Positions 5,458 to 55,119 of a stretch of 64,000 nucleotides of DNA are shown here, piece after piece. Within the stretch, counting starts at the first letter, position 1, and each line of letters begins with the position of its first letter. The stretch is from Xylaria sp. FL1777 (Eukaryota > Ascomycota > Sordariomycetes > Xylariales > Xylariaceae), in NCBI GenBank assembly GCA_022578965.1, contig MU400727.1:1-64000 (forward strand), given 5' to 3'. Position numbers and translations under genes: made by a program. The notes below the pieces were generated by a model, which was given only the letters and a program-made list of their open reading frames with translations, ran no database searches and had not been told where the DNA came from.

Positions 5458-5761
5458 TGAAATAAAGCAGTGTAATCGTGCAAGATTTACTATATTACTT
5501 TAATTGCAAAAAGATAAGTTATAATTTATGCATTTAAGCAATTAGGCTATATATAAATTAGAAAATTAAACGATTAATTAAAAAGCTATTTAATAATATA
5601 AATAAAGCAACCGTAGCTAATTTTTATTTTATTGTATGTAATTTTTAAGTTTATACTTTAAAATCTAGCGTAATACTTATACTTTTATTTTTACTATATA
5701 ACTTAGCTTAAATTTACTTTAACTAGCTAGTTAGCTTATTTAGTTACTTTACTTTATTTTA
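5458..5761 (-). repeat. 3' LTR of gypsy copy 1
   Basis: This 304-bp repeat is matched by 20111-20414. It begins TGAAATAAAG and ends TTTTA on the plus strand. The terminal TA is probably a mutated CA, giving canonical TG...CA ends. Differences from its partner LTR are nearly all C/T or G/A. Confidence 0.92.
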
Positions 5762-5762
5762 A

Positions 5763-5771
5763 TTTTTTTTT
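5763..5771 (-). promoter_or_regulatory. Polypurine tract of gypsy copy 1
   Basis: Nine T residues (A on the coding strand) sit one base inside the LTR, in the same place in copies 2 and 3. A purine run here is the expected primer for plus-strand DNA synthesis and fixes the element's orientation. A-runs are common in this DNA, so position matters more than composition. Confidence 0.6.
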
Positions 5772-8700
5772 ATTAAAATATAGCTACTTTTAGTTTATTT
5801 TAATACTTATAATTATATAGTTTTTTATTTTTATTAGCGTTTTTTAAACAGAGTTAATATTATTTTTTTTTGCTTATTTAGTTTTATAAGCTTTTTTTTA
5901 TTTCTTTTGCTACGTTTAAAAGTAGCTTAAGCTTTAGCGCTTATAAAAGCATTATAGCTTTATTAAAACTAGTTTTAGCTTTTTTACATATTTAAATATA
6001 TAAGCAAAAGCCTTTAAAAATACCTAGCGTTTTTTTTGTAAAAATGCTTATAAAAAGTTTATACTTTTTTTTTTTTAAACTATTAAGCTTAGCTAAATTT
6101 TATATTTAGTTTATTATACTTAAAAAAAAAAATATTTATAAAAGTTTTTATAGCAAAATAACTTTATACTACTAAAACGTTTTTATATTGCTTATAATAT
6201 AACTTTTTTAGTATAATTGTTAGTTTTTTTTGTTAAAAACTTTTTTTGCGCTTTAAAGTAAAAAGCACTAAAAAAACAAAACAATTAATTTTTAGTTTTT
6301 TTTTTAGCATTTTTTTTTTATTTTGTATATTTTTAGCGCTTAATAGTAAAAAAGCTAACTTATTAGATCTAAAAAAAGTTGCTTTTAGTTTTTTTAAAAA
6401 ATAATAAAGCTTAATGCTTATTAAAAGCAATAAACGTAAATCTTTTTATAACTTAAAGCTAAAGTACTTTTTAAGGTTTGCTTTTAAAAATTAAATAAGC
6501 TATTTATAATTTTTTTAATTATTAATACTTCTTTTTAAATATTAGCTTATTAAGTTACAAAACACGTAATATAAATATAAAGCTTTAATAAACCTATATA
6601 TGTAGTTATTACGTTAGCAAAAATAAAAAAATATAAAATAGCTTAATATAACCTTTATATTAAAGTGCTTTATTGTTTAATACTTTTGTAATTTTTAAAA
6701 AACTTATTTATTATTTTTATTAGTAGCATATTTAAAGTTTAAAATATATGCTACTTTTAAAACAGTATTAATAAAAATAGTAATCTAGTAATTATTTAAG
6801 CAATATTTTATTATAAAATATTTTATTTAAAAAATTATAATAATTATTGCAGCTTATTTTATGTTTTGTTAGTTTATAAAAAGATCTTTTATAAATTAAC
6901 TATACTTAAGTTTAATACTTATTTTTAGAGCTTTAGCTTTTTTATTTATATATAGCTAAAGTAATACGTTTAATAAAGCTTTTATTTTGCGTTTATTTAG
7001 CTATTTTTTAGCGTTTAGCTTTATAAAAATATTTGTAATATAAATAGCTTTAATTTTTTATTTTGTAGTGTTTACTTCATAAAAGTTTTTGTAGCAGCTA
7101 TAAATAGCAAGCTTTTTTTAGTAATTTAAATATTTTTATTTATATTAGTAAGTTTTTTTAGCAGTTGTTTATTGTTCTAAAAAGAAAGTTTTTAACTACT
7201 GCTTTTTATTATTTTTATATATTATTTTTAAAACTTTACTTAGTAAAAAACAATAAGCTAGCTTTTGTTTATTATAAAGCTTTAGTTTATTAAAATGTTT
7301 TATGTTATTATTTTTTTAATAATTGTTTAAAGCTTTTTTTAATAGTAATTTTTTTAGAAATTTTATAAACAATAATTGCTAAATATTTAGTTTTTGTATT
7401 GCAAGTTTTTATTTCTTATATAATTTTAGCTTTATTGCTAAAACTATTAGATTTTTTATAAATATAACATTAAACTTATTAAAGCAAAAATTATTATTTT
7501 TATAGTGTTTTTTAATTTTAAATAAGTATTATATTAATATTATAAAACTTTTTATAGCTATAAATCTTAATATTTAGTTTATAGCTTATAAAAATGCTTT
7601 TAAATATTTAGTTTTTAGTTTAAATATATAAAATAGCGTTTTATTTATGTTTACTAAGCGGTTTTATGCAATAAAGTATGCTATAAAAGCTTTTCTTTAA
7701 AAATTAAGCGCTTTTTTATTAAGCAACAAATTAAAAATATAAAAAACTTCTATTAAGATTACATGTAATATAAACTATTAATATTTTAACGCTTTTTTAT
7801 TATAATATTTTTTATATATTAAGTATATTGCTTTTTTTTATATTTGTTAAACTAAGTTTAAAAATAAGTTTTAGTAAGTTTTGCTATTTTTAAAGAACGC
7901 ATAGCTAAAATGCTTTTTTAGTACTACTTTTTTTCTTTTTTCTAAGTTTTTAAAAAACAAACTTTTTATAAAAATTACTTCTTTTTATATAAAATAAAAC
8001 TTTAAAACAAACTTTAAAAAAACATTAACTAAAAAAAGCAGTATGTTTTTTAGCTAAACATTTTTTGCATTTAGTTCTTTAATCTATAAAAAAAGCTAGC
8101 AAGCTAAATATTTTTTGTACTTTAAATTTTTAACAATTATTAGCTTTTTTTTAAAGCTGTTTTTAAAAAGCTGTTAGTTTTTAAAAAAAAGCTTTTTATA
8201 ATTAGCAGTTAAGTTTATATATATATGCTTATTTTTTCTCCCTTTTGCTTTTTTTTTAAAATCTGCTATTTTTTATACTAATTACTTGTACGCTTTAGTA
8301 TTAAATATTAGCTTTATAAAACTTTTAAAAAGAAATGCTTCTATTTTTAGTTAATCTGCAGTACTAATAACTTCTTTAAAAATAAAAAATATAATAATTA
8401 AAAGCATATATATATAATAAAAGCAATTTTTAATAATATTTAAGCGTATATATATTTTTGTTATGTTTTATAATTTAGTAAAAAATGCAAGCAAATTAAA
8501 AATTTTAATATAAGTTAAAAATACAAAAGCAAATAGTATAAAAGGTATAAAATATAAGTATTAATATTAGTACTGCTTGCTTTATATAGTTTAATATTTT
8601 TAATTGCTAATTTAAATTATTACTTTTTAATAATTATAAAATCTTTTAAATATAAATGCTAAAAGCATTTATACTAAATATAAAAAATTAAAACTTATTA

Positions 8701-11430
8701 AGTAAATAAAATAGCAAAGTTAAGTATAAATAAAAAGTTTAATAAAGCAAATATAATAAAAAAAAAGCTAAAATATGTATTTTTAAACTAGTGCACTTTT
8801 TTTTTACAAACTTACTATATTATTTTTAATTTATTAATTAATTATTTTATTGCTAAAATAAATTATTAATTGCTAAATGTTCTTATAATAATTACTTTTT
8901 ATATGTTTATACTAGTATTAATTAAAAAATAAGCAAATAAAATAATTTTAATTAGCTAAATAATTACTTTTTAACTTTTTTTTAATATATTTATAATTTA
9001 CTTTTTTTAAATATTTATTACTACTAATAGTAAAATAAATAACTTAAGCTTTAGTAAGTATAAAAAAAAGGCTTGTTTTTTTTTTTAATTTGTTTTTTTT
9101 TAAGTAGTTTTAAAGCTTAAATTTTTTTTGCAATTTTTTTTCTTAGTGCTTAAATCTTTAGATTACTTAAATTACGCCTTTATTATAAAGTTTTTATTTT
9201 TAAGTAATATAATTAATGCTTGCTTAACTAAGCACTTAAAAAATAATTCTTGCGTTATTAATAAAGTTTTAAACAATTAAAAAGCATTATAATAATTAAC
9301 TAATATTTAAAAAATTAATATTGCTTAGCTAATAAACAGTTATACTTATAATATTTAAAAAGTTAAGTTTACTAACAAATAGCAAAATATATATGCTTTT
9401 TTTTTTTTTAAATCTTGTTTTTTTTATTTAGCTAACTTTTTTTGTTTTATATAACTAAGCACTAAGCTATTTATAAATTAAAATTTTTAGTAATAATATT
9501 AGCAGCAAATATATTTAATAAAAAGTTAGTTATAATTTTTTTTATATATGCTATATAAATTAATATATTTAAGCTAGCTTTAATTAAGTAAAAAAGCAAA
9601 AGCATTTAAAATCTTGCTTATTATATATAAAAACAACTAAAGGCAGTTTTTAAAGCAAATATATATATTAGATCTTTTATAACTTTTGCTAACTTATAGT
9701 TATGTTTATATAGCTGTTTAAAATATAAAATGCTATACTTTATAAGCATTATAAACAGTTGCTAATAATAGCTAAAAGCAAAAAATATATAAAGCTTTAT
9801 TTTTTTTTTTTTTGCTGCACTATTTTAAAATAAAGGTTTAATATATATACTAACTGCGCGTTTATTATTTAGTTATAAAACTGTTTATTTTATAAGTCCA
9901 AAAGCAACATAGCTAAATATTTTAAAGCTAATATAATAATTGCAGTAGTTAAAAAAGATTTTATGCTTAAAAACTTTAAAAAACAAATAGTTCTAACTAA
10001 AAATACCTTTGTTTACTTAACTAAAAAAAAAACTAAATTAAAACGCAAATTAAAACGTTTTTTTTAAGCTAATTTTGTTGTTTAGCTTATTAAAAATAAT
10101 ATTAATAAGTAATAATTTAATATTACTTAAAAAATTAGCATAACGCTTAAGTATTTAAAAAAATAGCTAAAAAAATAAATTAAATAAGTTATATAAAATA
10201 AAATAAAATAAAAAAATTAAACAATTTGCTTATATAGCAATGTTCTTTTTAATATAATTTATAATTATTTTTTTTTATTGCATAGCTTATAAATTTTTTT
10301 TTAAGCGTAATAAATAAGAAAAAAATAGTTATTATATAAAAAGTTAAGTTATAACATTTATAAAAGCAAATATATAAAACTTTTGCAACAAAAAAATCAA
10401 AAATATACAAAATAAAAATTATTAATACTAGATTATTAAATTTTCTTTTGTTTTTTTTTTAGTTTTTATTTTTTTAGCTTTATATAATTAAATAATCTTG
10501 CTTAATTTTTTGTAGCAAAGTTTTATTTCTGCTAAGCTTACTTTAAACTTTGCTTAAGTATTTACTGTTTTATTAAATATTTATTATTGCTTAATAGCAG
10601 TTTTAGGTTATTATTAATAGTTTAAACGTATAAAATATAAACTAGCAACTTTTTAAAGTGTAATAATAGTGTTTTTTACTTTTTAGTAGTTCTAAAGTTT
10701 TTATTAAGTATTAAATAGTTTAAACTAAAAGCAAAAAAAGCTGTTTAGTTTTAAATAAAAATAATAAAGCAATTAAAAGTAAAAAAACTTATGCATAAGC
10801 ATTAATGCAGTAAAATAAACTTAAGTAGTTAAAACTAATAAGCAGTTTTTATTTTTATTTCTTTTGTTTTTATGCATTTTTAAAAAAAAGCAATAATAAT
10901 TTATACTAAAACTAAGCTGCTTAGCTATTTAAAAAACGTTAAAATAAAATAAAGACTTATATTTTTAGCGTAATAATAAAAAAAGTGCTAATAAACTAGC
11001 TGCTATAAAACTAATAAATATAAAACTAATAAAAAAAAAGCTATAAAAAACGCGCTTAATTTTAAGCAAAAAAAAATAATTTTATGCATTATAACTTAAT
11101 TATATAAACTTATATAATTAGTAAAAATAAAAAACAAAACAATTAGTAAAAAAACAAAAAGTAAAAAAAAAAAAATTTGTTGCTTTAGCTTTTGTTAGTT
11201 ATTACTTTTTAAAGCGCTTTATAGTATAGTAGCTAAAAAAATAAAGTAAGCTATTATATTTTTTAGCACTTAAAATATTTAAAGCGCTAAAAGTTATACT
11301 GCAGCTTTTATAAACTTAAAAAGCTTTTATAACTTGTTATATTTTTTTTATTCTTTATAGCTTAATTATTATAGCTTTAATTATTAAAAGCTTTATTGTT
11401 TTAGTTTAATTTTTAGTAAATAGCTATAGT
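5772..11430 (-). other. Unexplained 5.7-kb block between integrase and 3' LTR, copy 1
   Basis: This block lies downstream of the integrase C-terminal region and is present at full length in all three copies, so it was part of the element before it spread. Stops in every frame prevent a direct reading. Minus-strand frames near 5800-6430 and 6960-7800 show lysine-rich, possibly coding stretches, but I recognise no domain. Possibilities are an extra ORF, an env-like or captured gene, a long 3' untranslated region, or an older nested insertion carried along. Confidence 0.5.
6233..6430 (-). pseudogene. Residual 65-codon open stretch near the 3' LTR, copy 1
   Basis: This short open stretch on the element's sense strand lies about 470 bp inside the 3' LTR. 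It is rich in Lys, Leu and Phe, with a basic lysine cluster in its second half. It remains open in copy 2 (25106-25303) and aligns with copy 3 near 41241-41438. The first codon is TTG, not ATG, and the copy 3 equivalent is TAC, so this is an interior fragment and not a gene start. It may be the remnant of an extra ORF after pol. I recognise no family, and chance openness is possible because the three copies share descent. Confidence 0.3.
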
Positions 11431-14330
11431 ACTAATAGTTCATATATTAAAGTTAAAATTCTTTAGTTTTTAGTACTTTTAGTTATTTTATATAAATTGC
11501 TTTAATTTTTTAAAAAAAAACAACCTTTTTAATTTTTTGCTAGTTAGTTTTACTAATTAATATTACTTATAATTAATATTTTTTTTAACTTTATAAAAGC
11601 TAATTTATTTATATAATAGCTTTTTATTATTAAACTTATTTATTAAAAGCATAGTATTATAAAAAAAAACAAAAAAGCTTTTTTTAAGTAGTTGCTTAAT
11701 TTTATAAGCGTTTTTTTAAAATTTAGCTTTTATAGCTAATTTTCTTTTTTTAGTTATAATTGCCTTAACTTTTATAATATTTTAGTTATAGCGTTTTAAT
11801 TGCTTAACTTTAGCTTTAATAAAATTTTTATAAAAGGCAATATTTTGTTATTTAATTACTTTTTATGTTAGTATTACATTTTTTACTAGCAAAATTAGCA
11901 TTTTTTTATATATTAGCTTATATAAGCTGCAGCTATAATAGCACACAAAAATATAATTTACTTATACTACTAAGTTTAAATATTTTAGCTAATTTTTTTT
12001 AGTTTTATTTATTACTTATATAAAGCTTTTTTTTATTAGCTTATAGCTTTTTTTAATAAAGCTTTAAGCTTAAAAATAATAAGTTAAACTATAGTTTATT
12101 TTATAGCTTAAAGTATTTATTGCATTTTTTACTTCTTTTTTGAATTTAAAGCTATTATTATATTTAATTCTTATAAAAACTTCGTGCTAAAATACGATTT
12201 TTTTTTTAATAAATTTAAGTATTCTTAAAAAATCTATGTGTTTTAAAAGTTTAGCTTTTAAATAAGTTATTATTTTGTATTTTGCTTTTATAATAGCTTT
12301 AAATTTATTATTTAATAGCATAGTTTATATATTTATAACTTAAAAAACTAGAAAATCTAAAGAGTAATTAAAACAGTATTTTTTAGTTTTTTTGCTATTT
12401 GCAGATTTTTAGCAATTAAAATAACTAGCAATTATAACATAAACATTTTAATAAAAGCCCTTTTAGTAATATCTTTAAGTTATTTGTTAAGTTATAAATA
12501 TTTAGCTTTTATAGGTTATTTTTTTATAGTTTTTTTTAATAAAAGCTTTTTAAGTCTTTTTGTTATTAATAACCCTTTTTAGCATTCTTTTAAACTTTGT
12601 TTTCCTTTAAAAAATGAACTTATTAATAAAAAATTTAAAAGCTTCTTTTTTAAAGTAATTCTGCTTTTTTTCTGTTATAAGTTTTTTTAAAACTTGCTTA
12701 AAAACAAAATACTTAGCAATTTACTTGCTTTTTTTGCTTTAATCTTTTTTTAAGTATAGCAAAAGTTTTATTTTTTAGTATACTAAGCTTTTAACTAGTT
12801 AATTGCTTAATTTTTTATACGCAATAATAATAGCTATTATATATAGTTAAAAATTAATAAAATCTTTTATATTTTTTTTTTAATAATTATTTAACTTATT
12901 TAATAGCTTAAAAAGTTTTTTAAAAAGCTTATTAGTAGCTATATGTTTTTTTTTTAGCATATAATAAAATATAAAATTAAAAGTCTTTATATATGTTATT
13001 TATTTTGTTAATTAAGCATTTAATAATGCTAAAAATCTATTATTTAGTTATGCTATAAAAACTTTTGCATTAGTTTTTAAATAAAACGTAATTTTATAAA
13101 AATAGTTTTGCAACTTTTAAAAAGTTTTAATAATAGCAAGCTTTTTTAGCTTTATAGCATTATATTTTTTTTTAAGGCCTTTTTATGTTTTAAACTTATA
13201 TTTTGCTAGTTTAATAGCTTTATTAACTTTTTAGCATAAAATAGCGCTTTAGCTAGTTTTAAAAGCATTTATTTTTAGCTAAATAAGTTTTTTTGTGTAA
13301 TTAAAAGTAATAAAAATAAAAGCTATTATAATAGCTTTTTAAAGCTTTTTTATAGCTTTTTTTTGCAGTTTTTTAAAGCAAAACAGCTTATTTTTCCGTA
13401 ACAAAACCATTAATAGTTTTGCAATTATAACATACTTTTATATTTATATCTAGTAATATACTATTATTTTTAAAAAAAACTATACTTTTATAATGTTTTT
13501 ATAAGTCTTTTATTTAAGAATTTTTATTACTTTTGTTTTTATTAAGCTTTTGCTATTAGTGCTATATATATAGCTAATTATTTTAGTTGTTTGTTTTACT
13601 TATTTGCTTTTAAGTACGCTAGCTATAATTTTAGCTAGCTTAAAATTAAGCAGTATAGCATTAAGATTTTTAAAATGCTTTAATATAAACTGCTTAATTT
13701 TTAAAGCAACTTTATAATTATTATACTTAGTAATAAGTCCTTTAATTACTACGTTATTAAAAAAAGGTTTGCACTTTATTAATAATATATTATATAAAAC
13801 TTTTAATAGTACTTTTAAAAATTAAGCTACTAAATTTATTGCTTTTTATAAAAAAGTAATTATTTAAAAAAAGCTTATTAGTATAAAAAAAGCAATTATT
13901 GCTTAGCTAAAAATAAAAAGTAGTATTTAATTATATTTTAAAAATAAATTAACTATAAAAATTACTTTATATATTGCAAACTTTTTAAAAAACTTATTAT
14001 AGCTTTAAAAAAAATTAGCATTATATATAGTAATTACGTTTATTTTTGTAGCTAAATTAATTAATTAAACTTTTTTACTTTTTTTTTGCACTAAAAACTA
14101 AGCGTTGCAATATAAACTATAAGCTTTTTTAAAAACATTATGCTTAAGTTAAGTTTTTAAAACCTTTATAGTAATATTTTTTAAAAATTTAAGAATTAAA
14201 ATGCTGCAAATTTGCTATGCTTTATAAAAAACTGTTTTAATTTTATAAAAAGGAAAAATTTTATTATATATTTTTTTTATTTTAAAAAAGTTTTAAAAAA
14301 GTGCTATTTTTTTGCAATACTATATTTTAG
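11430..14330 (-). pseudogene. Ty3/gypsy pol remnant (RT, RNase H, integrase), copy 1
   Basis: Read on the minus strand through its stops, this follows fungal gypsy Pol. Reverse transcriptase lies at about 14300-13560: a segment near 14030-14057 reads like the LINATKIN block, and a segment ending near 13650 reads like the stretch after the catalytic site (KGP, then IRQFILEHF). The catalytic Asp pair is Asn-Asn (codons 13753-13758), as G-to-A change predicts. RNase H is at about 13300-12980 (KYNAI, then a TDAK-like site read as TNAK). Integrase follows: zinc-binding region about 12560-12400, core with a DNG-like site near 12130, and C-terminal region to about 11480. In the zinc region the first Cys of the pair reads Tyr (12421-12423) and the second survives (12412-12414). 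Limits are approximate; the gene is dead. Confidence 0.85.
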
Positions 14331-17300
14331 TTAATAATATTGCTTTTTGTTAAGTAAGGTTAGTTATATAAAGCTTTTTTAAAAAAACAGCTAATTGTTT
14401 AATAATTAGTTAAGTGCTTTTAAAAGTAGTGCTAAAACGTAAATATATGTTTTAATAAATGCTATTTTGTTAAAATAGCATAAGATTTTTTAAGTAATAG
14501 CTTGTTTTTTTTAAAGCTTGCTTTTTTTACTTATAAAATCTAAGTAAAACAGTGCTATTAAATAGTACGTTATCTTTAAAATAAATCTTTTTATTTTTTG
14601 TTTTATATATTATATTTAAAATTATTGTTTTACTTTTTATTAATTTGTTAGTTTTTAAAGCTTAAAAAATTAATAGTACTTAAGTTAAAATTATAATTAA
14701 GTTATATTTGCTTTTTAATTTATATGCAGGATTTTTAGTTTTTATAATTGTTAATCTTTTAGCATTTTTTTGCTTTAGTGTTTTTTTTATTATAACTAAA
14801 AGTATTTTAAGTAGTTAATTATTATTAAAAATAGTACAGACCTTTTTATTGTTTTATATCCTTAGATTTTCAAAAAGTTTAATATTTTATATAAAAGAAA
14901 TTAAAAAAGCTACTAACGTTATATTATTATATAGGTTTTAATTTTTTTAAAAGTTTGCATTTGCATATTTTTTTAAACTATATCTTTTTAATTTTTCTTT
15001 TGCTTTTTTTTGCTAATCGTTAGATTCCTTATTTAAAGTCCGGTATTTTTATGCCTTTTATAGCTTATTTGCTAAACTAGTAGTTTAGCAAATATATATT
15101 AGTTTTTTAGTTATTAATGTTTTTAAGCTTTTAAACTTAGTTCTTTAATATAGTTTATTACTAGTATAATAATTTAGCTTGTTTTAAATATTATACTAGC
15201 TATTATATAAAAGCCTTAAAAATATAAACTTATTTAAAACTTTATAATAAAGTTTATTTTTAGCAATAAAAAGTAAATAGCCTGTTTTTTGCTAACTATA
15301 TATAGCAAAAAAGGTAATAACCTCTTATTTATTTAAATAGTAGTTTTTAAGCATTTTATACATTTAATTAAATTGTTAGTTTAGTTAAATTCTTTTTAAG
15401 TTATATTTATATTTTTAGTAGTAAAGCTGTTTTTATTAATAAATAAGTCTATAATAATGTTAAACTACGCTTTAAAATTAATAATTTTAATAATATTCTT
15501 TCCGTAAATTTTGTTTTTTATTTTTACAGTAAGCTTTAAGCAAAGCTATATATATTCTTTTAGCTTTATAATACCTAAAAATATAGCTAAAATATTTTGT
15601 AATCTTAGCAATAAAGCTAACATAAAACATAAATTTAAAAAGCTTAAGTATTTTTAGTTAAAATAATTTGTTAGGCTTAAGTTTTCTTTATTATAAAATT
15701 TATACTTTAATGTTTTTTTAAATAAGTTTGAGCTATTACTGCTAATATAATTATTATACTTTTTATAAATCTTTATTTTAAAAAGGTTAAAAGTTTAATT
15801 AACGCTTTTTAAAACTATTAATGCTAGCTACATTAGCTTTTTAAGCTTTTTTTTTTCTTTTAGCACTACTAGCATAAAATTAGCATAAAGCTAAAGTTTA
15901 GTTAAAAATATTACTTTTTTTAAAAGTAGCATAAGTATAACAATTAGTAATTTTTGTTTTTCTAGGTTATTTTTAAATAATAAATATATAGTATTATATT
16001 AGTTTAAAATCTTAAAAAGCATTTTATTAAACTTTAGCTTATTTTTTAACGTTTAAAAATCTAAAGCAATATAAGCAAAAAATAACATTACTTAATTATT
16101 TTATTAGTTTTAATTGCAAAAAATCTTTATTATTTTATAGCATTACTTATTTAAAAAAGCAGCTATAAAGCTAAATTAAAGCATATAAGTATACATAATA
16201 AAACCGTTATATTTTATTTTTTTATTTATTTGTACTACTAAATAGTTTAATAAAAAGCTAGTTTTGCAAGTGCTACTTAGCAATTTATATTTATTAAGCT
16301 AATTAGCTAATTATAACATTAGCTAAAAATTTTTTTGTACTTTTTTAACTGCTAGCTATTAAAATTTTATGTTATTTTCTAAAAAGTTTATGCTTTTATA
16401 AAGAAAAGTATTTTTTATGTTTATTTAAGTTAAGATTTCTTGCAATAAAGTTTTTAGTTAAGCTTTATATCTTGATTTATTGCTTTTTTTTTTAAAATAA
16501 GTTGTAGTATGTTTAATTTAATTTGCTAACTTAAACTTTTGCTAAAGTTATTTAAAAGTAATAATATTATTTTTAGTATTAGTTTAAGTACTTTTGCTGC
16601 TTTAAAATATAACTTAGCTTTTATTTAAGCAATTGTTTAAATAAAAACACTAAAGTACTTTAAAACTCCTAGTATAAAGTTCTTAAAAATAACATCCGTT
16701 TTTTTGTTTAAAAAGTTCTTGGACTTTTTAGCTTATATTTTTTTAAATTTTAAGCTTTTTTTTATAAGTTTTGCTTTTTAGATTTTTTAAAGCTTTTAAT
16801 AATTAAAACTTTTTAGTTTTAGTAAAGTATTTTGCTTGTAAAAATTATTGTTTATTTATGTATTTTTAGTATTAAGCTAAATAAAAGACTTATTGTTATT
16901 TAAATAAATCTTTTTAATTGTTTAATTTATAAAAGGCTTCTTTTTTTGTTTTTTAGGTTTTTTTTTACTTTTTGTTTAGTAAAAGGTAGCTTTTTTAGTT
17001 AAAAGCTTATAATAATTAGCTTAAAACATATTTATGCTAATTTTTTTGCTTAATATATAGCTTTATAAAACTTTAGTACTATTTATATTATAAAAAATGC
17101 TTTATGTAAAGTTTTAATTAGTTGCAATAAAGCTATTATTTAGCTTGCTATTTATTAAGTTATTTTTTTTAACATTGCAAGCCTTTGCTAGTTTTATTTT
17201 ATAAAGCGTACTAATTTAATTATTAGTTTTTTTATTTAAAAATTAGTTTAGCTGCTTGTTATTTAGCTAGTAAAGTCTTTTTTTTTTTTAACTCTTTTGT

Positions 17301-20092
17301 TTGCTTTTTATTTTAGCATTTAGATCTTTATTATTTAAAATAAAGTTTTTTTTCTGCAGTTAATAATAAGCTTTTTACTTAAGCAGTTTATTATTGCTTA
17401 AAACAAAGTTATATATTTATTTTATTGTAGCATTAAAAATTCTTTTTTTATTTTTGCTAATTTTTATAACTTTAAAAAGAACTTTTATACATTTAAGGCT
17501 TGCAAAAAATCCTAGCTTTTTTAAGCATTATTTAAAGTTTTAGTATATAATGTTTTTTTTTTTTAATTTGTAAGCAAAGCTGCACTTATAAACGTAGTAA
17601 TTGTTTATGCTACATTTTTAACAAATAGTTCTTTTTACTAAATAAAGATTATTTAACTTTACTTATTATAAAAAATTAAACAATTATTTGCTTTGTTTTT
17701 GTTTTTTAAAGTTATATTTACTTCTTTATAAATATTTAAAAATTATAGCATTAATGCTAAACATTTACTTCTTTAATAAGTTTATATTAATTTTGTAATA
17801 CTATAATGTTTATAATTCTTAATTAATTAGCTAAATATACTGATTTTATAGTTCTTTTAGCATTTCTTTTAGTTTTTTTTTTATAATTGCTACATTTTTT
17901 TGCTTTAATTTTAACTATTATATTTGCTTAGTAATATTATCTATGTTTTAATTATAAGCAAAGTATTAAGTTAATTTTATTTATTGTTTTTTAATAATAA
18001 CCGTTTTAGCAGCTAGTATAGTTATATTAACAGCTAGCTTAGTAGCATTAATAGCAGTATATAAAAGCTTATTAAAATTATAATTATATAAATAATTAAC
18101 TTTTTTTTATGCTTTGCGTGCTTTTTTTGTTTTTTTAAAGTAAAAATTTAGCTTAAACTCTTTATTAATTTAGTTATTTAATGTTTTATAAAAGTTCTTA
18201 TAAAACATTTCGTTTAAGTTATTATATAACTTTTTAAAGAACTTTATTATTTTATTAATAATATTTTTATTTAGTTCTTTAAGCAAACTTTAAGTAAGTT
18301 AAAAATTAAAGTAGTAATTTTTTTAGGCTTTAATATTTTTAACATATACTTAATGCTAAAAAAAATAAGTTTTAAAATCGGTAAAATGTATAGCTTTTAA
18401 GCAAGCTTTAAAATCCTGCAATATAGTAATAATAAACTTATTTTACTTAAAATCTTAAAGCTTAAACTTTTGCTTAAGCAGTTTATAAGCTTTAATTTAT
18501 AATAAACAATTTTTTAGTATTATTTTTACTATTTTTTTTGTTTAAGAAGTATTGCAATAAACAAGAACTTATTTAATTTTATTAATATTTTTAAAACGCT
18601 TTGCATAAAAAAAAGCATTTAAATCGTTTAGCTATTTGTTTACTTTTAACTTATTAAACAGTAAATGTTAGTTTAACTTTAAGTTAAAAAGCATAAATAA
18701 TAGCTTAATTTTAGCATTATGCTTATTATTAAAATAGCTTAAACTAAATAAAGTTGCTTTAATATTTTTTAAAAACAATAAGCTAGTTATTTTTATTTTT
18801 TTTGTTTATAAGTAGTTTTAATGTTTTTTATATATTAAAATAAAAAGATCTAATAATTTTTTATAGCTAGATTATTTAACTAAGCTATAGTTTTTAAACT
18901 TTTAAGCTATATAATAAATTAAAGTAAAGTTTATATAAAAGTAACAAAAAAAGTAAGCTGCAAAAAATAATAAAAGTAAGCTAAATAAAAGTATAAGTTT
19001 AAAAAAAAAGAAAGTATAAAATGCTAAAAATTTTTAAATATTTTAAGTATTTAGGTTTTTTTGTGCTATTTTTTTAAACTTTTTTTTTAAAAAACTTAAT
19101 AATTTTTTTTATTTGCGTTTATAAAAACTGCTAGCTTATTTTTTATAGCTTTTTAAGTTTTCCTCTAAATGCTTTTATATTTTTGTTTTTTATATGCTTT
19201 TATCTTTTTATATGCTTTATAGCGTTTAGTTTTTTTGTTTTTTAGTTTAGCTTACTTTGCTTTATGCAAGTTTTATTAAGCAGGCTTTATTTTTTTATAG
19301 CTTTTTATTTATAAAGGTAGCATGCTTTTTTTTTTTTTTTAAAGCCTTTTTATTTAATAATAAGTATTATAAAAAAGCAATAGCTACGTTTTATGTAAAG
19401 TTTTTAAGCAATAACTAGCTTACACTTAAAAAACCTTGCTTTTTATTTCTTAATAAAAAATTATATTAGCTTAAAAAATAAAGTATATTTTTAATTATTA
19501 ATAGCTTTATATATTAACATGTAAACTTAAATTTATTTAATGTAAATAAACGTTAGATTTGCTTGCATTATAGCTTTTAAAGGTTTTAGCAACTTTTACT
19601 TTTTTTTAGGCCTGTTTTTTGTTTTTTTTTGCTTATATAAAGGCAATTGTGCCTTTTTTTTTATAAAGCACTAGCTTTTTAGCAAAAATTTCTTTTTTTT
19701 AGCTTTTTAAGGATTTTTAACAAATAGTTTTTTAGCTGCGCTATTTTAAAAATTATGTTAGCATTTTAACACTTAATTGTTGTTTTGCTAAAAAAAATAA
19801 AAGCGCTTTATAAACTAAACTAAAAAAAACAGTTTAACATTTTTATACGTTTGTTTTAAGTTTTAATAATTAAAAGCTGCTAGCTTAAACGTTTATTGCT
19901 AATTATAATTAAACTGCTTGCGCTAAGCAAGCTTTACTTATTACTAGCTAAAATAGCTAAATATAATATATTGTGTTCTGCTTATAAAAATTATAGCAAT
20001 TAATAAATAAATAAATTAAACATATAAGTTAGCAATAATAAATTGCTTATTTGTTAGTTTTGTAGTATTATTTATAGTAAATAAAAAATCGG
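14331..20092 (-). other. Gag/protease-side block of gypsy copy 1, unresolved
   Basis: This is the interval between the primer-binding site and the recognisable reverse transcriptase, where gag and protease should lie in a gypsy element. I could not locate a convincing zinc knuckle or protease Asp-Thr/Ser-Gly site by eye. At nearly 5.8 kb it exceeds what gag plus protease normally need, so a long leader or additional coding sequence is likely. It aligns along its full length with copies 2 and 3. Confidence 0.45.
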
Positions 20093-20109
20093 CTTTACTA
20101 AGAATACTA
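20093..20109 (-). other. Putative primer-binding site, gypsy copy 1
   Basis: Just inside the right (5') LTR, the coding strand reads TAGTATTCTTAGTAAAG. Copies 2 and 3 have TAGTGTTCTTAGTAAAG at the same place, so the site is conserved while its surroundings drift. TAG could be a mutated TGG, the usual start of a site complementary to a tRNA CCA end. I cannot name the tRNA. Confidence 0.4.
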
Positions 20110-20110
20110 A

Positions 20111-20414
20111 TAAAATAAAGCAGTATAATTGCGCAAGATTTACTATACTACTTTAATTGCAAAAAGATAAGTTATAACTTATGCATTCAAGCAATTAAGC
20201 TATATATAAATTAAAAAATTAAACGATTAATTAAAAAGCTATTTAATAATATAAATAAAGCAACCATAGCTAATTTTCATTTTGTTGTACATAATCCTTA
20301 AGTTTATACTTTAAAATCTAGCGCAATACTTATACTTTTATTTTTACCATATAACTTAGCCCAAACTTACTCTAACTAGCTAGTTAGCTCATTTAGTCAC
20401 TCTACTTTACTTTA
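20111..20414 (-). repeat. 5' LTR of gypsy copy 1
   Basis: This 304-bp partner of 5458-5761 holds the element's promoter if transcription runs minus. It retains more C (for example around 20370-20405) than the other LTR, so the two were mutated unevenly. It contains the short palindrome ATAAGTTATAACTTAT. Confidence 0.92.
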
Positions 20415-24329: not shown

Positions 24330-24634
24330 TGAAATAAAGCAGTGTAATTGCGCAAAATTTACTATACTACTTTAATTGCAAAGAAATAAGTTATAATTTA
24401 TGCATTTAAGCAATTAAGCTATGTATAAATTAGGAAATTAAACAATTAATTAAAAGGCTATTTAATAATATAAAATAAAGCAACTATAGCTAATTTTTAT
24501 TTTATTATGCATTGTTATTAAGTTTATACTTTAAAATCTAGCGTAATATTTATATTTTTATTTCTATTATATAATTTAGCTTAAATTTATTTTAATTAGC
24601 TAATTAGCTTATTTAGCTATTTTATTTTATTTTA
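24330..24634 (-). repeat. 3' LTR of gypsy copy 2
   Basis: This 305-bp repeat pairs with 39004-39308. Both copy 2 LTRs carry the same region reading AATATAAAATAAA where copy 1 has AATATAAATAAA, so the extra base predates or accompanied this insertion. Confidence 0.92.
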
Positions 24635-24635
24635 A

Positions 24636-24644
24636 TTTTTTTTT
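24636..24644 (-). promoter_or_regulatory. Polypurine tract of gypsy copy 2
   Basis: Nine T residues lie one base inside the LTR, identical in position to copies 1 and 3. Confidence 0.6.
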
Positions 24645-27600
24645 ATTAAAATATGGCTGCTTTTAGTTTATTTTAATACTTATAATTATATAGTTTTTTA
24701 TTTTTATTAGCGTTTTTTGAACAAGGTTAATATTATTTTTTTTTGCTTATTTAGTTTTATAAGTTCTTTTTTATTTTTTTTGCTATGTTTAAAAGTAGCT
24801 TAAGCTTTAGCGTTTATAAAAGTATTATAGCTTTATTAAAACTAGTTTTAGCTTTTTTACGTATTTAAATATATAAGTAAAAGCTTTTAAAAGTGCTTAG
24901 CGTTTTTTTTATAAAAGTGCTTATAAAAAGTTTATACTTTTTTTTTTTTAAACTATTAAGCTTAGCTAAGTTTTATACTTAGCTTATTATACTTAAAAAA
25001 AAAAATATTTGTAAGAGTTTTTATAGCAAAATAACTTCGTATTATTAAAACGTTTTTATATTGCTTATAATGTAACTTTTTTAGTATAATTGTTAGTTTT
25101 TTTTGCTAGAAATTCTTTTTGCGCTTTAAAGTAAAAAGCATTAAAAAAACAGAACAATTAACTTTTAGTTTTTTTTTTAGCGTTTTTTTTTTACTTTGTA
25201 TATTTTTAACGCTTAATAGTAAAAAAGCTAACTTATTAAATTTAAAAAAAGTTGCTTTTAGTTTTTTTAAGAGATAATAAAGCTTAGTGCTTATTAAAAA
25301 CAATAAACGTAAATCTTTTTATAATTTAAAGCTAAAATACTTTTTAAAGTTTGCTTTTAAAAATTAAATAAGCTATTTATAACTTTTTTAATTATTAATA
25401 CTTTTTTTTAAATATTAGCTTGTTAAGTTATAAAACATGTAGTATAAATATAAAGCTTTAATAAACTTATATATATAATTATTGCACTAGTAAAAGCAAA
25501 AAAGTATAAAATAGCTTAATATAACTTTTATATTAAAATGCTTTATTGTTTAATATTTTTGTAATCTTTAGAAAACTTGTTTATTATTTTTATTAATAGT
25601 ATATTTAAAGTTTAAAATATATGCTACTTTTAAAACAGTATTAATAAAAATAGTAATTTAGTAATTATTTAAGCAATATTTTATTATAAAATATTTTATT
25701 TAAAAGGTTATAGCAATTATTATAGCTTATTTTATGTTTTGCTAGTTTATAAAAAGATTTTTTATAAACTAGCTATATTTAAGTTTAATACTTATTTTTA
25801 AAGCTTTAGTTTTTTTATTTATATATAGCTAAAGCAATATGTTTAGTAAAGCTTTTATTTTGCGCTTATTTAGTTATTTTTTAGCGTTTAGCTTTATAAA
25901 AATATTTATAATATAAATAGCTTTAATTTTTTATTTTGTAGTGTTTACTTTATAAAGGTTTTTATAGCAGCTATAAATAGTAAGCCTTTTTTAATGATTT
26001 AAATACTTTTATTTATATTAGTAAGTTTTTTTAGCAGCTATTTATTGTTTTAAAAAAAAAGTTTTTAGCTATTACTTTTTATTATTTTTATGTATTATTT
26101 TTAAAACTTTACTTAATAAAAAATAATAAACCGGCTTTTATTTATTATAAAGCTTTAGTTTATTAAAATATTTTATATTATTATTTTTTTAATAATTATT
26201 TAAAGCTTTTTTTAATAGCGGTTTTTTTAGGGATTTTATAAATAATAATTGTTAAATATTTAGTTTTTATATTGTAAGTTTTTATTTTTTATATAGTTTT
26301 AGCTTTATTGCTAAAACTATTAGATTTTTTATAAATATAACGTTAAACTTATTAAAGCAAAAATTGTTATTTTTATAATGTTTTTTGATTTTAAATAAGT
26401 ATTATATTAATATTATAAGATTTTTTATAGCTATAAATTTTAATATTTAATTTGCAGTTTATAAAAATGCTTTTAAATATTTAGTTTTTAGTTTAAGCAT
26501 ATAAAGTAACGTTTTATTTACGTTTACTAAGTAGTTTTATGTAGTAAAATATGCTATAAAAGCTTTTTTTTAAAAATTAAGCGCTTTTTTATTAAGCAAT
26601 AAGTTAAAAATATAAAAAATTTTTATTAAGATTACATATAATACAAATTACTAATATTTTAATGCTTTTTTATTATAATATTTTTTATGTATTAAATATA
26701 TTGCTTTTTTTTATATTTATTAAACTAAGTTTAAAAATAAGTTTTAGTAAGTTTTATTATTTTTAAAAAACGTATAGCTAAAATGCTTTTTTAGTACTAC
26801 TTTTTTTTTTTTTTTTAGGTTTTTAAAAAACAAACTTTTTATAAAAGTTACTTTTTTTTATATAAAATAAAACTTTAAAACGGACTTTAAAAAAACATTA
26901 ACTAAAAAAAGCAATATATTTTTTAGCTAAATATTTTTTATATTTAGTTTTTTAATTTATAGAAAAAGCTAATAAGCTAAATATTTTTTGTATTTTAAAT
27001 TTTTAATAATTATTAGCTTTTTTTTAAAGCTATTTTTAAAAAGCTATTAGTTTTTAAAAAAAAGCTTTTTATAATTAGTAGTTAAGTTTATATATATATG
27101 TTTATTTTTTTTTTTTTTTGTTTTTTTTTTAAAGTTTGTTATTTTTTATACTAATTGCTTGTACGCTTTAGTATTAAATGTTAGCTTTGCAAAACTTTTA
27201 AAAAAAAATACTTTTATTTTTAGTTAATTTGCAATACTAATAATTTCTTTAAAAATAAAAAATATAATAATTAAAAGCATATATATATAATAAAAGTAAT
27301 TTTTAATAATATTTAAGCATATATATATTTTTGCTATATTTTATAATTTAGTAAAAAATGTAAGCAAGTTAAAAATTTTAATATAAGTTAAAAGTATAAA
27401 AGTAAATAGTATAAAAAATATAAAATGCAAGTATTAATATTAGTATTATTTGCTTTATGCAGTTTAATATTTTTAATTGCTAATTTAAGTTATTATTTTT
27501 TAATAATTGCAAGATTTTTTAAATATAAATGTTAAAAACATTTATGCTAAATATAAAAAATTAAAACTTATTAAGTAAGTAAAATAGTAAAATTAAGTAT

Positions 27601-30300
27601 AAATAAAAAGTTTAATAAAGCAAATATAATAAAAAAAAAACTAAAATATATATTTTTAAATTAGTATATTTTTTTTTTATAAACTTATTATATTATTTTT
27701 AATTTATTAATTAATTATTTTATTGCTAAAATAAATTATTAATTGCTAAATGTTTTTATAACAATTATTTTTTATATGTTTATGCTAGTATTAATTAAAA
27801 AATAAGCAAATAAAGTAGTTTTAATTAATTAAATAGTTATTTTTTAACTTTTTTTTAATATATTTATAATTTATTTTTTTTAAATATTTATTGTTATTAA
27901 TAGTAAAGTAAATAATTTAAGCTTTAGTAAGTATAAAAAAAAAGCTTGTTTTTTTTTTTAATTTGTTTTTTTTTAAGTAGTTTTAAAGCTTAGATTTTTT
28001 TTGCAATTTTTTTTTTTAGTGCTTAAGTTTTTAAATTACTTAAATTACGTTTTTATTATAAAGTTTTTGTTTTTAAGTAGTATAATTAATGCTTGCTTAA
28101 TTAAGCACTTAAAAAATAATTTTTGCATTATTAATAAAGTTTTAAACAATTAAAAAACATTATAGCAATTAATTAATATTTAAAAAATTAATACTACTTA
28201 GCTAATAAATAGTTATACTTATAATATTTAAAAAGTTAAGTTTATTAATAAATAGCAAAATATATATGCTTTTTTTTTTTTAAATTTTGTTTTTTTTATT
28301 TAGTTAACTTTTTTTGTTTTATATAATTAAACATTAAGCTATTTATAAATTAAAATTCTTAGTAGTAATGTTAGCAGTAAATATATTTAATAAAAAGTTA
28401 GTTATAATTTTTTTTATATATGCTATATAAATTAATATATTTAAGCTAGCTTTAGCTAAATAAAAAAACAAAAGCATTTAAAATTTTGCTTATTATATAT
28501 AAAAACAACTAAAAGTAGTTTTTAAAGCAAATATATATATTAAATCTTTTATAACTTTTGTTAATTTATAGCTATGTTTATATAGCTATTTAAAATATAA
28601 AATATTATATTTTGTAAGCATTATAAATAGTTATTAATAATAGCTAAAAGCAAAAAATATATAAAGCTTTATTTTTTTTTTTTTTGCTATACTATTTTAA
28701 AATAAAAGTTTAGTATATATATTAACTGCACGTTTATTATTTAGTTATAAAACTGTTTATTTTATAAGTTTAAAAGTAATATAGCTAAATATTTTAAAGC
28801 TAATATAGTAATTATAGCAGTTAAAAAAAATCTTATGTTTAAAAACTTTAAAAAATAAATAATTTTAACTAAAAATACTTTTGTTTGCTTAATTAAAAAA
28901 AAAACTAAATTAAAACACAAGTTAAAACGTTTTTTTTAAGCTAATTTTGTTGCTTAGTTTATTAAAAGTAATATTAGTAAGCAATAATTTAGTATTGCTT
29001 AAAAAATTAATATAATGCTTAAATGTTTAAAAAAATAGCTAAAAAAATAAATTAAATAAGTTATATAAAGTAAAATAAAATAAAGGAATTAAACGATTTG
29101 CTTATATAGCAATGTTTTTTTTAATATAATTTGCGATTATTTTTTTTTATTATATAGCTTATAAATTTTTTTTTAAATATAATAAATAAAAAAAGAATAG
29201 TTATTATATAAAAAGTTAAGTTGCAACATTTATAAAAGCAAATATATAAAACTTTTGCAACAAAAAAATTAAAAATATATAAAATAAAAATTATTAATAC
29301 TAAATCGTTAAATTTTTTTTTGTTTTTTTTTTAGTTTTTATTTTTTTAGCTTTATATAATTAAATAATTTTGCTTAATTTTTTGTAGTAAAGTTTTATTT
29401 TTATTAAGCTTGCTTTAAACTTTGCTTAAATGTTTACTGTTTTATTAAATGTTTATTATTGCTTAATAGTAGTTTTAAATTATTACTAATAGTTTAAACG
29501 TATAAAATATAAATTAATAACTTTTTAAAGTGTAATAATAATGTTTTTTGCTTTTTAGTAGTTTTAAAGTTTTTATTAAGTATTAAATAGTTTAAACTAA
29601 AAGCAAAAAAAGCTATTTAGTTTTAAATAAAAGTAATAAAGCAATTAAAAGTAAAAAAACTTATGTATAAGCATTAGTGCAATAAAATAAACTTAAGTAG
29701 TTAAAACTAATAAGCAGTTTTTACTTTTGTTTTTTTTGTTTTTATATATTTTTAAAAAAAAGCAATAATAATTTATATTAAAACTAAATTGTTTAGCTAT
29801 TTAAAAAACGTTAAAATAAAATAAAAACTTATATTTTTAACATAATAATAAAAAAAATGCTAATAAACTAGCTGTTATAAAACTAACAAATATAAAACTA
29901 ATAAAAAAAAAGCTATAAAAAACATACTTAATTTTAAGCAAAAAAAAATAGTTTTATGCATTATAACTTAATTATATAAACTTATATAATTAGTAAAAAT
30001 AAAAAATAAAACAATTAGTAAAAAAACAAAAAATAAAAAAAAAAAAATTTATTGCTTTAGCTTTTGTTAGTTATTATTTTTTAAAGCGCTTTATAGTATA
30101 ATAGCTAAAAAAATAAAGTAAGCTATTATATTTTTTAGTACTTAAAATATTTAAAGCGCTAAAAGTTATACTGCAGCTTTTATAAATTTAAAAAGCTTTT
30201 ATAACTTGTTATATTTTTTTTATTTTTTATAGTTTAATTATTATAGCTTTAATTATTAAAAGCTTTATTGTTTTAGTTTAATTTTTAATGAATAGCTGCA
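24645..30300 (-). other. Unexplained block between integrase and 3' LTR, copy 2
   Basis: This is co-linear with 5772-11430. The residual lysine-rich open stretch is at 25106-25303. Transitions separate the two copies and large indels are absent, so neither has lost or gained a segment here. Confidence 0.5.
25106..25303 (-). pseudogene. Residual 65-codon open stretch near the 3' LTR, copy 2
   Basis: This is the counterpart of 6233-6430, in the same frame and length and also starting at TTG. The two peptides differ at scattered positions, several explained by G-to-A change (for example Arg/Lys and Ser/Asn type swaps). Persistence of the open frame in two independently mutated copies is mild support for a former coding region. 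The pair are recent relatives and the stretch is short, so the support is weak. Confidence 0.3.
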
Positions 30301-33201
30301 ATACTAGTAGTTTATATATTAAAGTTAAGATTTTTTAGTTTTTAATACTTTTAGTTATTTTATATAAATTGCTTTAATTTTTTGAAAAAAAACAACTTTT
30401 TTAATTTTTTGCTAGTTAGTTTTATTAATTAATATTATTTATAATTAATATTTTTTTTAACTTTATAAAGGCTAATTTATTTATATAGTAGCTTTTTATT
30501 ATTAGATTTATTTATTAAAAGCATAGTATTATAAAAAAAAACAAAAAAGCTTTTTTTAAGTAGTTGCTTAATTTTATAAGCGTTTTTTTAAGATTTAGCT
30601 TTTATAGCTAATTTTTTTTTTTTAGTTATAATTGCTTTAACCTTTATAACATTTTAATTATAGCATTTTAGCTGCTTAACTTTAGTTTTAATAAAATTTT
30701 TATAAAAGGCAATATTTTGCTATTTAATTATTTTTTATGTTAGTATTATATTTTTTACTAGTAAAATTAGCATTTTTTTATATATTAGCTTATATAAGCT
30801 ATAGCTATAATAGTATATAAAAGTATAATTTGTTTATATTATTAAGTTTAAATATTTTAGCTAATTTTTTTTAGTTTTATTTATTACTTATATAAAGCTT
30901 TTTTTTATTAGCTTATAGCTTTTTTTAATAAAGCTTTAGGCTTAAAGATAATAAGCTAAACTATAGTTTATTTTATAGCTTAAAGTATTTACTGCGTTTT
31001 TTATTTTTTTTTTAAATTTAAAGTTATTATTATACTTAATTTTTATAGAGATTTTATGCTAAAATATGATTTTTTTTTTAATAAATTTAAGTATTTTTAG
31101 AAAATTTATATGTTTTAAAAGTTTAGCTTTTAAATAAGTTATTATTTTGTATTTTGCTTTTATAATAGCTTTAAATTTATTGCTTAATAGCATAGTTTGC
31201 ATATTTATAACTTAAAAAACTAAAAAATTTAAAAAGTAATTAAAACAATATTTTTTAGTTTTTTTGCTATTTATAAATTTTTAGTAATTAAAGCAACTAG
31301 TAATTATAATATAAATATCTTAATAAAGGCTTTTTTAGTAATATTTTTAAGTTATTTATTAAATTATAAATATTTAGCTTTTATAGGTTATTTTTTTATA
31401 GTTTTTTTTAATGAAAGCTTTTTAAGTTTTTTTGTTATTAATAATTCTTTTTAGCATTTTTTTAAACTTTGCTTTTTTTTAAAAAATAAACTTATTAACG
31501 AAAAATTTAAAGGCTTTTTTTCTGAAATAATTCCGCTTTTTTTTGTTATAAGTTTTTTTAAAACTTGCTTAAAAACAAAATATTTAATAATTTGCTTGCT
31601 TTTTTTGCTTTAATTTTTTTTTAAATATAATAAAAGTTTTGTTTTTTAGTATACTAAGCTTTTAATTAGTTAATTGTTTAATTTTTTATACATAATAATA
31701 ATAGCTATTATATATAATTAAAAATTAATAAAATTTTTTATATTTTTTTTTTAATAATTATTTAACTTATTTAATAGCTTAAAAAGTTTTCTAAAAAGCT
31801 TATTAGCAGTTATATGTTTTTTTTTTAGCATATAATAAAATATAAAATCAAAAGTTTTTATATATATTATTTATTTTATTAATTAAGCATTTAGCAATGC
31901 TAAAAATTTATTATTTAGCTATATTATAAGAACTTTTATATTAGTTTTTAAATAAAACATAATTTTATAAAAATAGTTTTGTAACTTTTAAAAGGTTTTA
32001 ATAATAGCAAGCTTTTTTAGCTTTATAGCATTATATTTTTTTTTAAGGCTTTTTTATGTTTTAAACTTATATTTTGCTAGTTTAATAGCTTTATTAACTT
32101 TTTAGCATAAAATAGTACTTTAGCTAGTTTTAAAAGCATTTATTTTTAGCTAAATAGGTTTTTTTATGTAATTAAAAGTAATAAAAATAAAAGCTATTAT
32201 AATAGCTTTTTAAAGCTTTTTTATAGCTTTTTTCTGCGGTTTTTTAAAGCAAAACAGCTTATTTTTTTATAACAAAACTATTAATAGTTTTGTAATTATA
32301 ACATACTTTTATATTTATATTTAATAATATACTATTATTTTTAAAAAAAACTATATTTCTGTAATATTTTTGCAAGTTTTTTACTTAAGAATTTTTATTA
32401 CTTTTGCTTTTATTAAGCTTTTATTATTAGTACTATATATATAGCTAACTATTTTAGTTGTTTGTTTTGCTTATTTGCTTTTAAGTATATTAGCTATAAT
32501 TTTAGCTAGCTTAAAATTAAGTAGTATAACATTAAGATTTTTAAAATGCTTTAATATAAATTGCTTAATTTTTAAAATAACTTTATAATTATTATACTTA
32601 ATAATAGGTTTTTTAACTACTATATTATTAAAGAAAAGTTTACATTTTATTAGTAATATATTATATAAAACTTTTAATAATACTTTTAAAAATTAAACTA
32701 TTAAATTTATTGCTTTTTATAAAAAAGTAATTATTTAAAAAAAGCTTATTAATATAAAAAAAGCAGTTATTGCTTAGCTAAAAATAAAAAATAATATTTA
32801 ATTATATTTTAAAAATAAATTAACTATAAAAATTATTTTATATATTGCAAACTTTTTAAAGAATTTATTATAGCTTTAAAAAAAATTAGCATTGCATATA
32901 ATAATTACGTTTATTTTTATAGCTAAATTAATTAATTAAACCTTTTTACTTTTTTTTTGCACTAAAAACTAAGCGTTGCAATATAAACTATAAGCTTTTT
33001 TAAAAATGCTATGCTTAAGTTAAGTTTTTAAAACCTTTATAGTAATGTTTTTTAAAAGTTTAAAGATTAAAATGCTGCAAACTTACTATATTTTATAAAA
33101 AACTGTTTTAATTTTATAAAAAGAAAAAATCTTATTATATATTTTTTTTATTTTAAAAAAGTTTTAAAAAAGTGCTATTTTTTTGCAATACTATATTTTA
33201 G
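30301..33201 (-). pseudogene. Ty3/gypsy pol remnant, copy 2
   Basis: Co-linear with the copy 1 pol. The reverse transcriptase catalytic pair is Asn-Asn (32624-32629), followed by a KKP stretch where copy 1 has KGL, both readable as mutated KGP. RNase H lies near 31850-32170 and integrase near 30350-31470. In the integrase zinc region the first Cys of the pair survives (31293-31295) and the second reads Tyr (31284-31286), the reverse of copy 1. Together the copies therefore show the original Cys-x-x-Cys. Confidence 0.83.
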
Positions 33202-38985: not shown

Positions 38986-39002
38986 CTTTACTAAGAACAC
39001 TA
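38986..39002 (-). other. Putative primer-binding site, gypsy copy 2
   Basis: The coding strand reads TAGTGTTCTTAGTAAAG, identical to copy 3 and one change from copy 1. Confidence 0.4.
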
Positions 39003-39003
39003 A

Positions 39004-40770: not shown

Positions 40771-40771
40771 A

Positions 40772-40780
40772 TTTTTTTTT
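40772..40780 (-). promoter_or_regulatory. Polypurine tract of gypsy copy 3
   Basis: Nine T residues lie one base inside the LTR, as in copies 1 and 2. Confidence 0.6.
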
Positions 40781-55118: not shown

Positions 55119-55119
55119 A

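What the first reader, a model, noticed from the sequence alone, without database searches (positions are those of the whole stretch)
5772..11430. A 5.7-kb conserved block after integrase in a gypsy element
In Ty3/gypsy elements the 3' LTR normally follows the pol end closely. Here about 5.7 kb separates them in all three copies (also 24645-30300 and 40781-46437), without large indels between copies. The element therefore amplified with this cargo. A lysine-rich open stretch near its far end stays open in two copies. It could be an undescribed extra ORF, an env-like gene, a captured host gene or a fixed nested insertion. This is the best candidate for something new in the window.
Basis: partly seen in the sequence, partly recalled or inferred. 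Interest (0 to 1): 0.75.

Follow-up and report, generated by a model that had tools for sequence, protein, structure and literature searches.

The report
Fungal retrotransposon with extra decayed gene
A heavily mutated 15-kb fungal jumping element carries, between its integrase and its end, a long fixed extra region that probably once encoded an additional protein of unknown kind, similar in layout to extra genes known in some plant and Botrytis elements.

Summary
Three minus-strand LTR elements of 14.96-14.98 kb each carry about 5.7 kb between the pol end and the 3' LTR. They differ almost only by C/T and G/A changes (8-17 transversions per pair). Of 29 further loci fetched (one is c3), 24 run unbroken into the 3' LTR, so the block is a fixed part of the element. 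No nested LTR or long inverted-repeat element was seen in it.

The mutation leaves purine/pyrimidine classes unchanged, so I tested coding in that code. About 3.0 kb next to pol gives no convincing signal. About 2.5 kb (window 5966-8466, sense to pol, some 830 codons) is depleted of stop-type codons like pol (0.078 against 0.079; nominal P=5.5e-6; 0 of 1000 simulations as extreme, closest 5.6e-6). The far half is weak. No transmembrane-like run was seen inside it; nothing matched in Pfam or PDB. All 23 copies read hold 46-58 stops.

Best reading: an extra element gene, function inferred. Extra ORFs at this place are a known kind.

The parts
5458..20414 (-). LTR element copy c1, 14,957 bp
   Evidence: terminal repeats; ends and 4-bp duplication GTAT
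5458..5761 (-). 3' LTR of c1 (304 bp)
   Evidence: LTR pair 25 transitions, 0 transversions, 2 gaps
20111..20414 (-). 5' LTR of c1
16516..18916 (-). gag-like reading frame (sense, frame +2 in element coordinates); limits approximate
   Evidence: R/Y codon signal (z 7.7; P=5.8e-6); no PDB match; identity as gag is by position only
11467..15216 (-). pol reading frame (RT, RNase H, integrase region)
   Evidence: RT/RNase H; signal (P=1.6e-11); integrase by place and frame only
5762..11466 (-). pol-to-3'LTR block, 5.7 kb, the finding
8467..11466 (.). about 3.0 kb of the block without convincing coding signal (weak hints: antisense near 9766-10215, sense near 8816-9415)
   Evidence: (z 0.3-1.1)
5966..8466 (-). 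probable extra ORF (about 830 codons, sense to pol); limits are those counted, not a mapped start and stop
   Evidence: 46-58 stops per 822 codons in 23 of 23 copies read
6236..6445 (-).
24330..39308 (-). element copy c2; block at 24635-30338
40467..55423 (-). element copy c3; block at 40771-46475

Best explanation
The block is a constitutive 3' region of a large fungal Ty3/gypsy-type retrotransposon. It consists of about 3 kb without detectable coding, followed by an additional sense-strand gene of about 2.5 kb that ends about 200 bp before the 3' LTR. Shown: fixed place, multi-copy colinearity, and a pol-like coding frame in R/Y code. Inferred: the gene made a soluble accessory protein from a subgenomic or spliced transcript, or from a promoter in the 3-kb spacer, which helped the element's own transposition or regulation. 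RIP-like mutation has since broken it in all 23 copies whose frame was read.
For: Stop-type (YRR) codons 65 of 833 in the sense frame, against 127 of 832 and 105 of 833 in the other two sense frames and 99 of 1249 in pol; 0 of 1000 simulated sequences as extreme, closest P=5.6e-6. R/Y triplet phase test z=4.7, 0 of 300, for E11850-12900, and z=3.5, 3 of 300, for E11850-14600. Stop density is lowest among sense frames in that frame in 6 of 6 windows E11551-14400. A model trained on gag and pol ranks it first in 14 of 17 windows from E11851 to E14700. Changes not of the RIP type are rarer in the ORF than in the adjacent spacer: indel sites 1.2 against 6.5 per kb (P=0.015), shared transversions 1.6 against 6.5 per kb (P=0.029); 26 of 30 copies, 4 broken ones dropped.
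Against: The limits were chosen after the scans, so the P values are nominal. The far half is weak (z=1.5, 26 of 300; P=0.043), and the whole block gives z=1.9, 18 of 300. Of the 17 windows only 2 pass the 99% null level, and frame +1 leads in 3. The same frame also has the fewest sense stops in three spacer windows E9301-10800, by small margins. A maximal-segment test over the block was not significant (34.8 against null median 25.8 and 95th percentile 41.0; confounded by composition). No match in Pfam (0 of 18, 36 and 23 translations), the PDB or two protein searches. Codon-position bias of transversions 10/5/12 is not significant (P=0.24). No intact copy, transcript or relative was seen.
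Confidence: 0.55

Rival explanations
1. Captured host gene (or gene fragment) carried by the master element, coding by origin but without a role for the element.
For: A sense coding frame without a recognised transposon domain.
Against: Fixed and full-length in most copies fetched; indels and shared transversions rarer than in the spacer, which suggests that it was kept. A host paralogue search was sent once and not answered, so this is untested.
Confidence: 0.2
2. An older nested element (non-LTR element or DNA transposon) fixed in the master, whose gene is the sense ORF.
For: An insertion would explain the non-coding stretch plus the long ORF.
Against: No direct or inverted R/Y repeat of 32 or more in the block. 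No RT seen in the ORF frame: protein P0001 scores 240 at pol and at best 57.5 in the ORF's frame, at E1545-2291 (shuffled maximum 58.5 of 8). No transposase domain by Pfam, though sensitivity on RIPped sequence is low.
Confidence: 0.1
3. The block, or most of it, is non-coding (regulatory, packaging or filler); the frame signal is a chance of composition.
For: Weak far half, not-significant segment test, limits chosen after scanning, no homologues.
Against: Nominal P=5.5e-6 with 0 of 1000 simulations, same signature as pol.
Confidence: 0.12
4. Antisense extra gene in the spacer next to pol, as in Boty brtn or plant Retand (could exist beside the sense ORF).
For: Antisense frame scores 10.4 at E10201-10650 (window 9766-10215), above the single-window 99% level of 9.8; known precedents.
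Against: 95 windows were scanned, so about one such window is expected. Phase test of E9000-10900 z=1.1; antisense stop-type depletion P=0.068 for E9150-10900, 0.019 for E9000-9900, 0.24 for E10050-10800. The first antisense hint came from a poor model.
Confidence: 0.15
5. Env-like gene.
For: Place and strand fit. A run of 18 pyrimidine second positions in 21 codons lies at E11868-11874, just upstream of the counted frame, and the true start is unknown.
Against: Inside E11985-14450 no 21-codon window exceeds 15 pyrimidine second positions (shuffle median 16, 95% 18; pol reaches 17), so no membrane anchor is seen there.
Confidence: 0.06

Closest known systems
Retand lineage of plant gypsy elements (PMC11963269; abstract, outline and passages seen)
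   Different: There antisense ORFs with TRP28 domain and, in about half, tandem arrays; here a sense frame is the strong signal, and the longest tandem array listed in the c1 block is 61 bp
Boty-like gypsy elements of Botrytis with antisense gene brtn (Zhao 2011, not read; seen through passages of PMC8365987, PMC7264820, PMC4227169, PMC5987419)
   Same: Gypsy element of a filamentous fungus with an extra gene beyond gag-pol
   Different: brtn is antisense; the Boty-like polyprotein carries a chromodomain. Sequence relation to brtn was not tested
[quoted passage not shown]
   Same: Place and orientation
   Different: No transmembrane-like run inside the counted frame here
Bdelloid rotifer LTR elements with added ORFs (PMC5408684, search listing only)
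   Same: LTR elements that carry extra ORFs
   Different: Not compared

Membership tests
Ty3/gypsy (Metaviridae-type) LTR retrotransposon | direct LTRs beginning TG and ending CA, short target duplication | tested here: met
   about 304-bp LTRs, 4-bp duplications; in all three copies the 3' end reads CA and the 5' end TA, as expected if TG was mutated
Ty3/gypsy (Metaviridae-type) LTR retrotransposon | RT/RNase H related to Ty3 | tested here: met
   profile of three broken copies matches Ty3 RT/RNase H 4ol8 E=7.5e-13 and Ty3 Gag-Pol 7q5b E=1e-11; Pfam RT_RNaseH_2 in 3 of 9 translations, best E=2.3e-7
Ty3/gypsy (Metaviridae-type) LTR retrotransposon | integrase after RNase H | tested here: inconclusive
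   the same frame runs on about 1.5 kb past RNase H; best place of the L049 integrase piece is collinear at E7744-8949 in that frame, but its score 60.8 is below the shuffled mean of 63.2; no PDB match
Retand-like or brtn-like element (antisense extra ORF) | antisense ORF between pol and 3' LTR | tested here: inconclusive
   only weak signals
Retand | TRP28 domain (PF04195) | tested here: inconclusive
   no Pfam match in 18, 36 and 23 translations, but the same method also missed RT and integrase in the known pol
Env-bearing gypsy (errantivirus-like) | env-like sense ORF with transmembrane segment | tested here: inconclusive
   none inside E11985-14450; an 18-of-21 run just upstream
Nested transposon inside the block | own LTRs or inverted ends | tested here: inconclusive
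   no R/Y repeat of 32 or more in the block; shorter ends and elements without repeats not excluded

The most novel reading that the evidence does not exclude
A fungal gypsy lineage encodes a large (about 830 residues), soluble, so far undescribed accessory protein from its 3' region, maintained by selection during its amplification.
Probability: 0.35. Interest if true: 0.6.

Novelty: new member of a known kind. Interest (0 to 1): 0.45.

Why it matters
Extra genes in LTR elements hint at functions beyond copying (regulation, host interaction). A fungal case with a large sense ORF would widen a pattern that, in the papers seen here, is described mainly from plants. The R/Y-code test used here reads coding signal out of RIP-mutated DNA without restoring any base, and could be applied to other dead fungal elements.

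Tried and rejected
Model errors and superseded results. One search used a frame model trained on element L049. It suggested an antisense gene at E8851-10950, but it did not clearly rank the known RNase H frame above a wrong one, so it was dropped. One search was trained in the wrong frame by my mistake. One search replaces both. The segment test is confounded by base composition and was not significant. A single-window periodicity peak in the spacer (5.7 at E11001-11600) was not borne out by the phase test of E10900-11850 (z=0.5). A local tblastn of L049 gag and pol against the copies printed nothing. Script one search stopped with an error after printing its context table. An earlier count said 5 of 6 control pieces; the right count is 4 of 5.

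Searches without result. Pfam on six-frame translations of the block in the three window copies (0 of 18), on six other copies (0 of 36) and on the ORF in 23 copies (0 of 23). PDB with the ORF profile and with the gag-like and integrase pieces. Large protein database with the ORF: 7995 candidates scored (capped) and 1308, none. The control with RT/RNase H found one distant protein (P0001, 20% identity, 7996 candidates, capped), so a negative in that search says little. Pairwise profile comparisons gave nothing, also for parts that should match, so they are uninformative. No structure prediction was run, because a model from so mutated a protein would mean little. Literature: the listings shown held no report of this element; the species is unknown, so the searches went by type only, and the library lacks most subscription papers.

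Changed on recheck: confidence of the best explanation 0.6 to 0.55 and of the non-coding rival 0.08 to 0.12 (limits chosen after scanning; closest simulation 5.6e-6); env-like 0.04 to 0.06 (hydrophobic-type run just upstream).
Full report
Setting. The window is part of an unnamed 58.7-Mb genome in 588 contigs. GC is 11-20% throughout, while an intact-looking element elsewhere in the genome has about 50% GC, so the window is a mutated repeat-rich region. That the host is a fungus with RIP is inferred from this pattern. Element coordinates (E) below run in the sense of the element; E = 20416 minus window position.

The elements. Self-comparison shows three colinear copies of about 15 kb, 91.8-92.1% identical. 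Their ends carry direct repeats of about 304 bp and 4-bp target duplications. Copies c2 and c3 sit in one copy of another repeat; an uninterrupted copy of that repeat lies inverted at about 59750-64000 and shows both sites empty. Differences between copies are 1086-1192 transitions against 8-17 transversions per pair. The LTR pairs of the three copies have 25, 28 and 34 transitions, 0 transversions and 1-2 gaps. The copies therefore come from nearly identical parents and were then mutated by a C-to-T process on both strands.

What is coded. Pfam sees only RNase H in the pol part (3 of 9 translations). A profile of three copies finds Ty3 RT/RNase H in the PDB (E=7.5e-13). The same method found nothing for the integrase and gag-like pieces, so it misses true parts too. 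A decay-aware comparison places RT/RNase H of protein P0001 at E6232-7497 (score 240; maximum of 8 shuffles 58.5). At chance-level score, but in the right frame and order, it places the L049 integrase piece at E7744-8949. Pol thus ends near window 11467, and 5.7 kb remain before the 3' LTR.

Fixed block. Of 29 loci fetched with the near-LTR piece besides c1 itself (L020-L048; L025 is c3, L029 starts at a contig end), 24 align without break over the stretch fetched (up to E11018-14916) into the LTR; 5 are broken. Of 7 loci fetched with the spacer piece, 6 align over the whole 3.6 kb (E9316-12916). These are the best-scoring copies: the genome search listed 40 matches out of 202 and 225 first-look candidates, so copy number is a lower bound and the share of broken copies may be higher. 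In R/Y code the only repeats of 32 or more in the element are the LTRs and one 32-base palindrome at E3768-3799, outside the block. So no nested LTR element and no long inverted ends were seen in the block.

A test that the mutation cannot blur. C-to-T and G-to-A changes leave purine and pyrimidine classes unchanged, so codon structure in R/Y code is that of the unmutated parent. Stops all fall in the class YRR. In pol, YRR codons are 99 of 1249 in the coding frame against 189 of 1250 and 199 of 1249. In the intact-looking element L049 the frame model trained on the window element ranked the true frame first in 14 of 15 windows from 2301 on. There the phase test detected 4 of 5 coding pieces and neither of 2 non-coding ones. 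In the block, E11950-14450 has 65 of 833 YRR codons in frame +2 against 127 of 832 and 105 of 833 (P=5.5e-6). None of 1000 simulated sequences did as well, the closest reaching 5.6e-6. The limits of the stretch were chosen after the scans, so these values are nominal. The phase test gives z=4.7 for E11850-12900, 1.5 for E12900-14600 and 3.5 for both together. The frame model ranks +2 first in 14 of 17 windows from E11851 on and +1 in 3; only 2 of the 17 pass the 99% null level of 9.8. Counts of actual stops over up to 37 copies agree: frame +2 has the fewest of the three sense frames in all six windows from E11551 to E14400, and the antisense shadow expected from pol is among the two lowest frames in 4 of the 6. 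Frame +2 also has the fewest sense stops, by small margins, in three spacer windows E9301-10800. The rest of the block, E9000-11850, gives z 0.3-1.1. A weak antisense signal near E10201-10650 is within what 95 windows may give by chance.

Constraint. Over 26 of 30 copies (4 broken ones dropped), changes that are not of the RIP type are rarer in the ORF than in the adjacent spacer: indel sites 3 in 2.5 kb against 6 in 0.93 kb (P=0.015), shared transversions 4 against 6 (P=0.029). In the LTR they are far commoner, with 11 shared transversions in 247 bp. The codon-position pattern of transversions (10, 5, 12) points the expected way but is not significant (P=0.24). These P values are modest, and related copies are not independent.

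What it is probably not. Second codon positions show no transmembrane-like run inside E11985-14450 (best 15 of 21 against a shuffle median of 16), which speaks against an env-like protein. A run of 18 of 21 just upstream (E11868) leaves a signal-type start open, because the true start is unknown. No RT-like match appears in the ORF's frame. No Pfam or PDB family matches. Every one of the 23 copies read has 46-58 stops in 822 codons, so none of these is intact; other copies were not read.

Reading. The most likely account is an extra, sense-strand, element-specific gene after a non-coding spacer. Its expression (spliced or subgenomic RNA, or a promoter in the spacer) and role (help or regulation of transposition) are inference from element biology, not shown here. 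[quoted passage not shown] abstract and passages), and an antisense extra gene is known in Botrytis (title cited in PMC8365987). The kind is therefore known; this member was not found described in the listings of the searches made.

Noticed in passing
L049 (another contig of the same genome): A gypsy element with chromodomain, 226-bp LTRs identical to each other, open frames of 610 and 1778 codons and about 50% GC; of 150 RNase H matches scored (623 candidates) the other 149 hold stops.
   Followed up: partly
5458-20414 and copies: The C-to-T mutation depends strongly on the 5' neighbour: in columns where at least one of 20 or more copies keeps C, the share of T is 0.89 after T, 0.88 after C, 0.48 after A and 0.10 after G; GpC is 6.2 times over expectation in the window. 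As recalled, classical RIP is described by the 3' neighbour (CpA).
   Followed up: partly
11467-18916: Gag-like, middle and pol reading frames lie in three frames, each one step back from the one before (E +2, +1, +0), as if two -1 frameshifts were used.
   Followed up: no
24330-39308 and 40467-55423: Copies c2 and c3 inserted in the same orientation 1.16 kb apart into one copy of another repeat.
   Followed up: partly
57328-59041: An 857-bp direct tandem duplication (91.5% identical), each half with a 38-bp tandem array.
   Followed up: no
1-5400, 22200-24330, 60840-64000: Flanking repeats also carry R/Y coding signal in 6 of 10 windows (z 4.0-8.6), while the 4 windows in 20415-22200 and 55440-60840 do not; what they code was not examined.
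   Followed up: no
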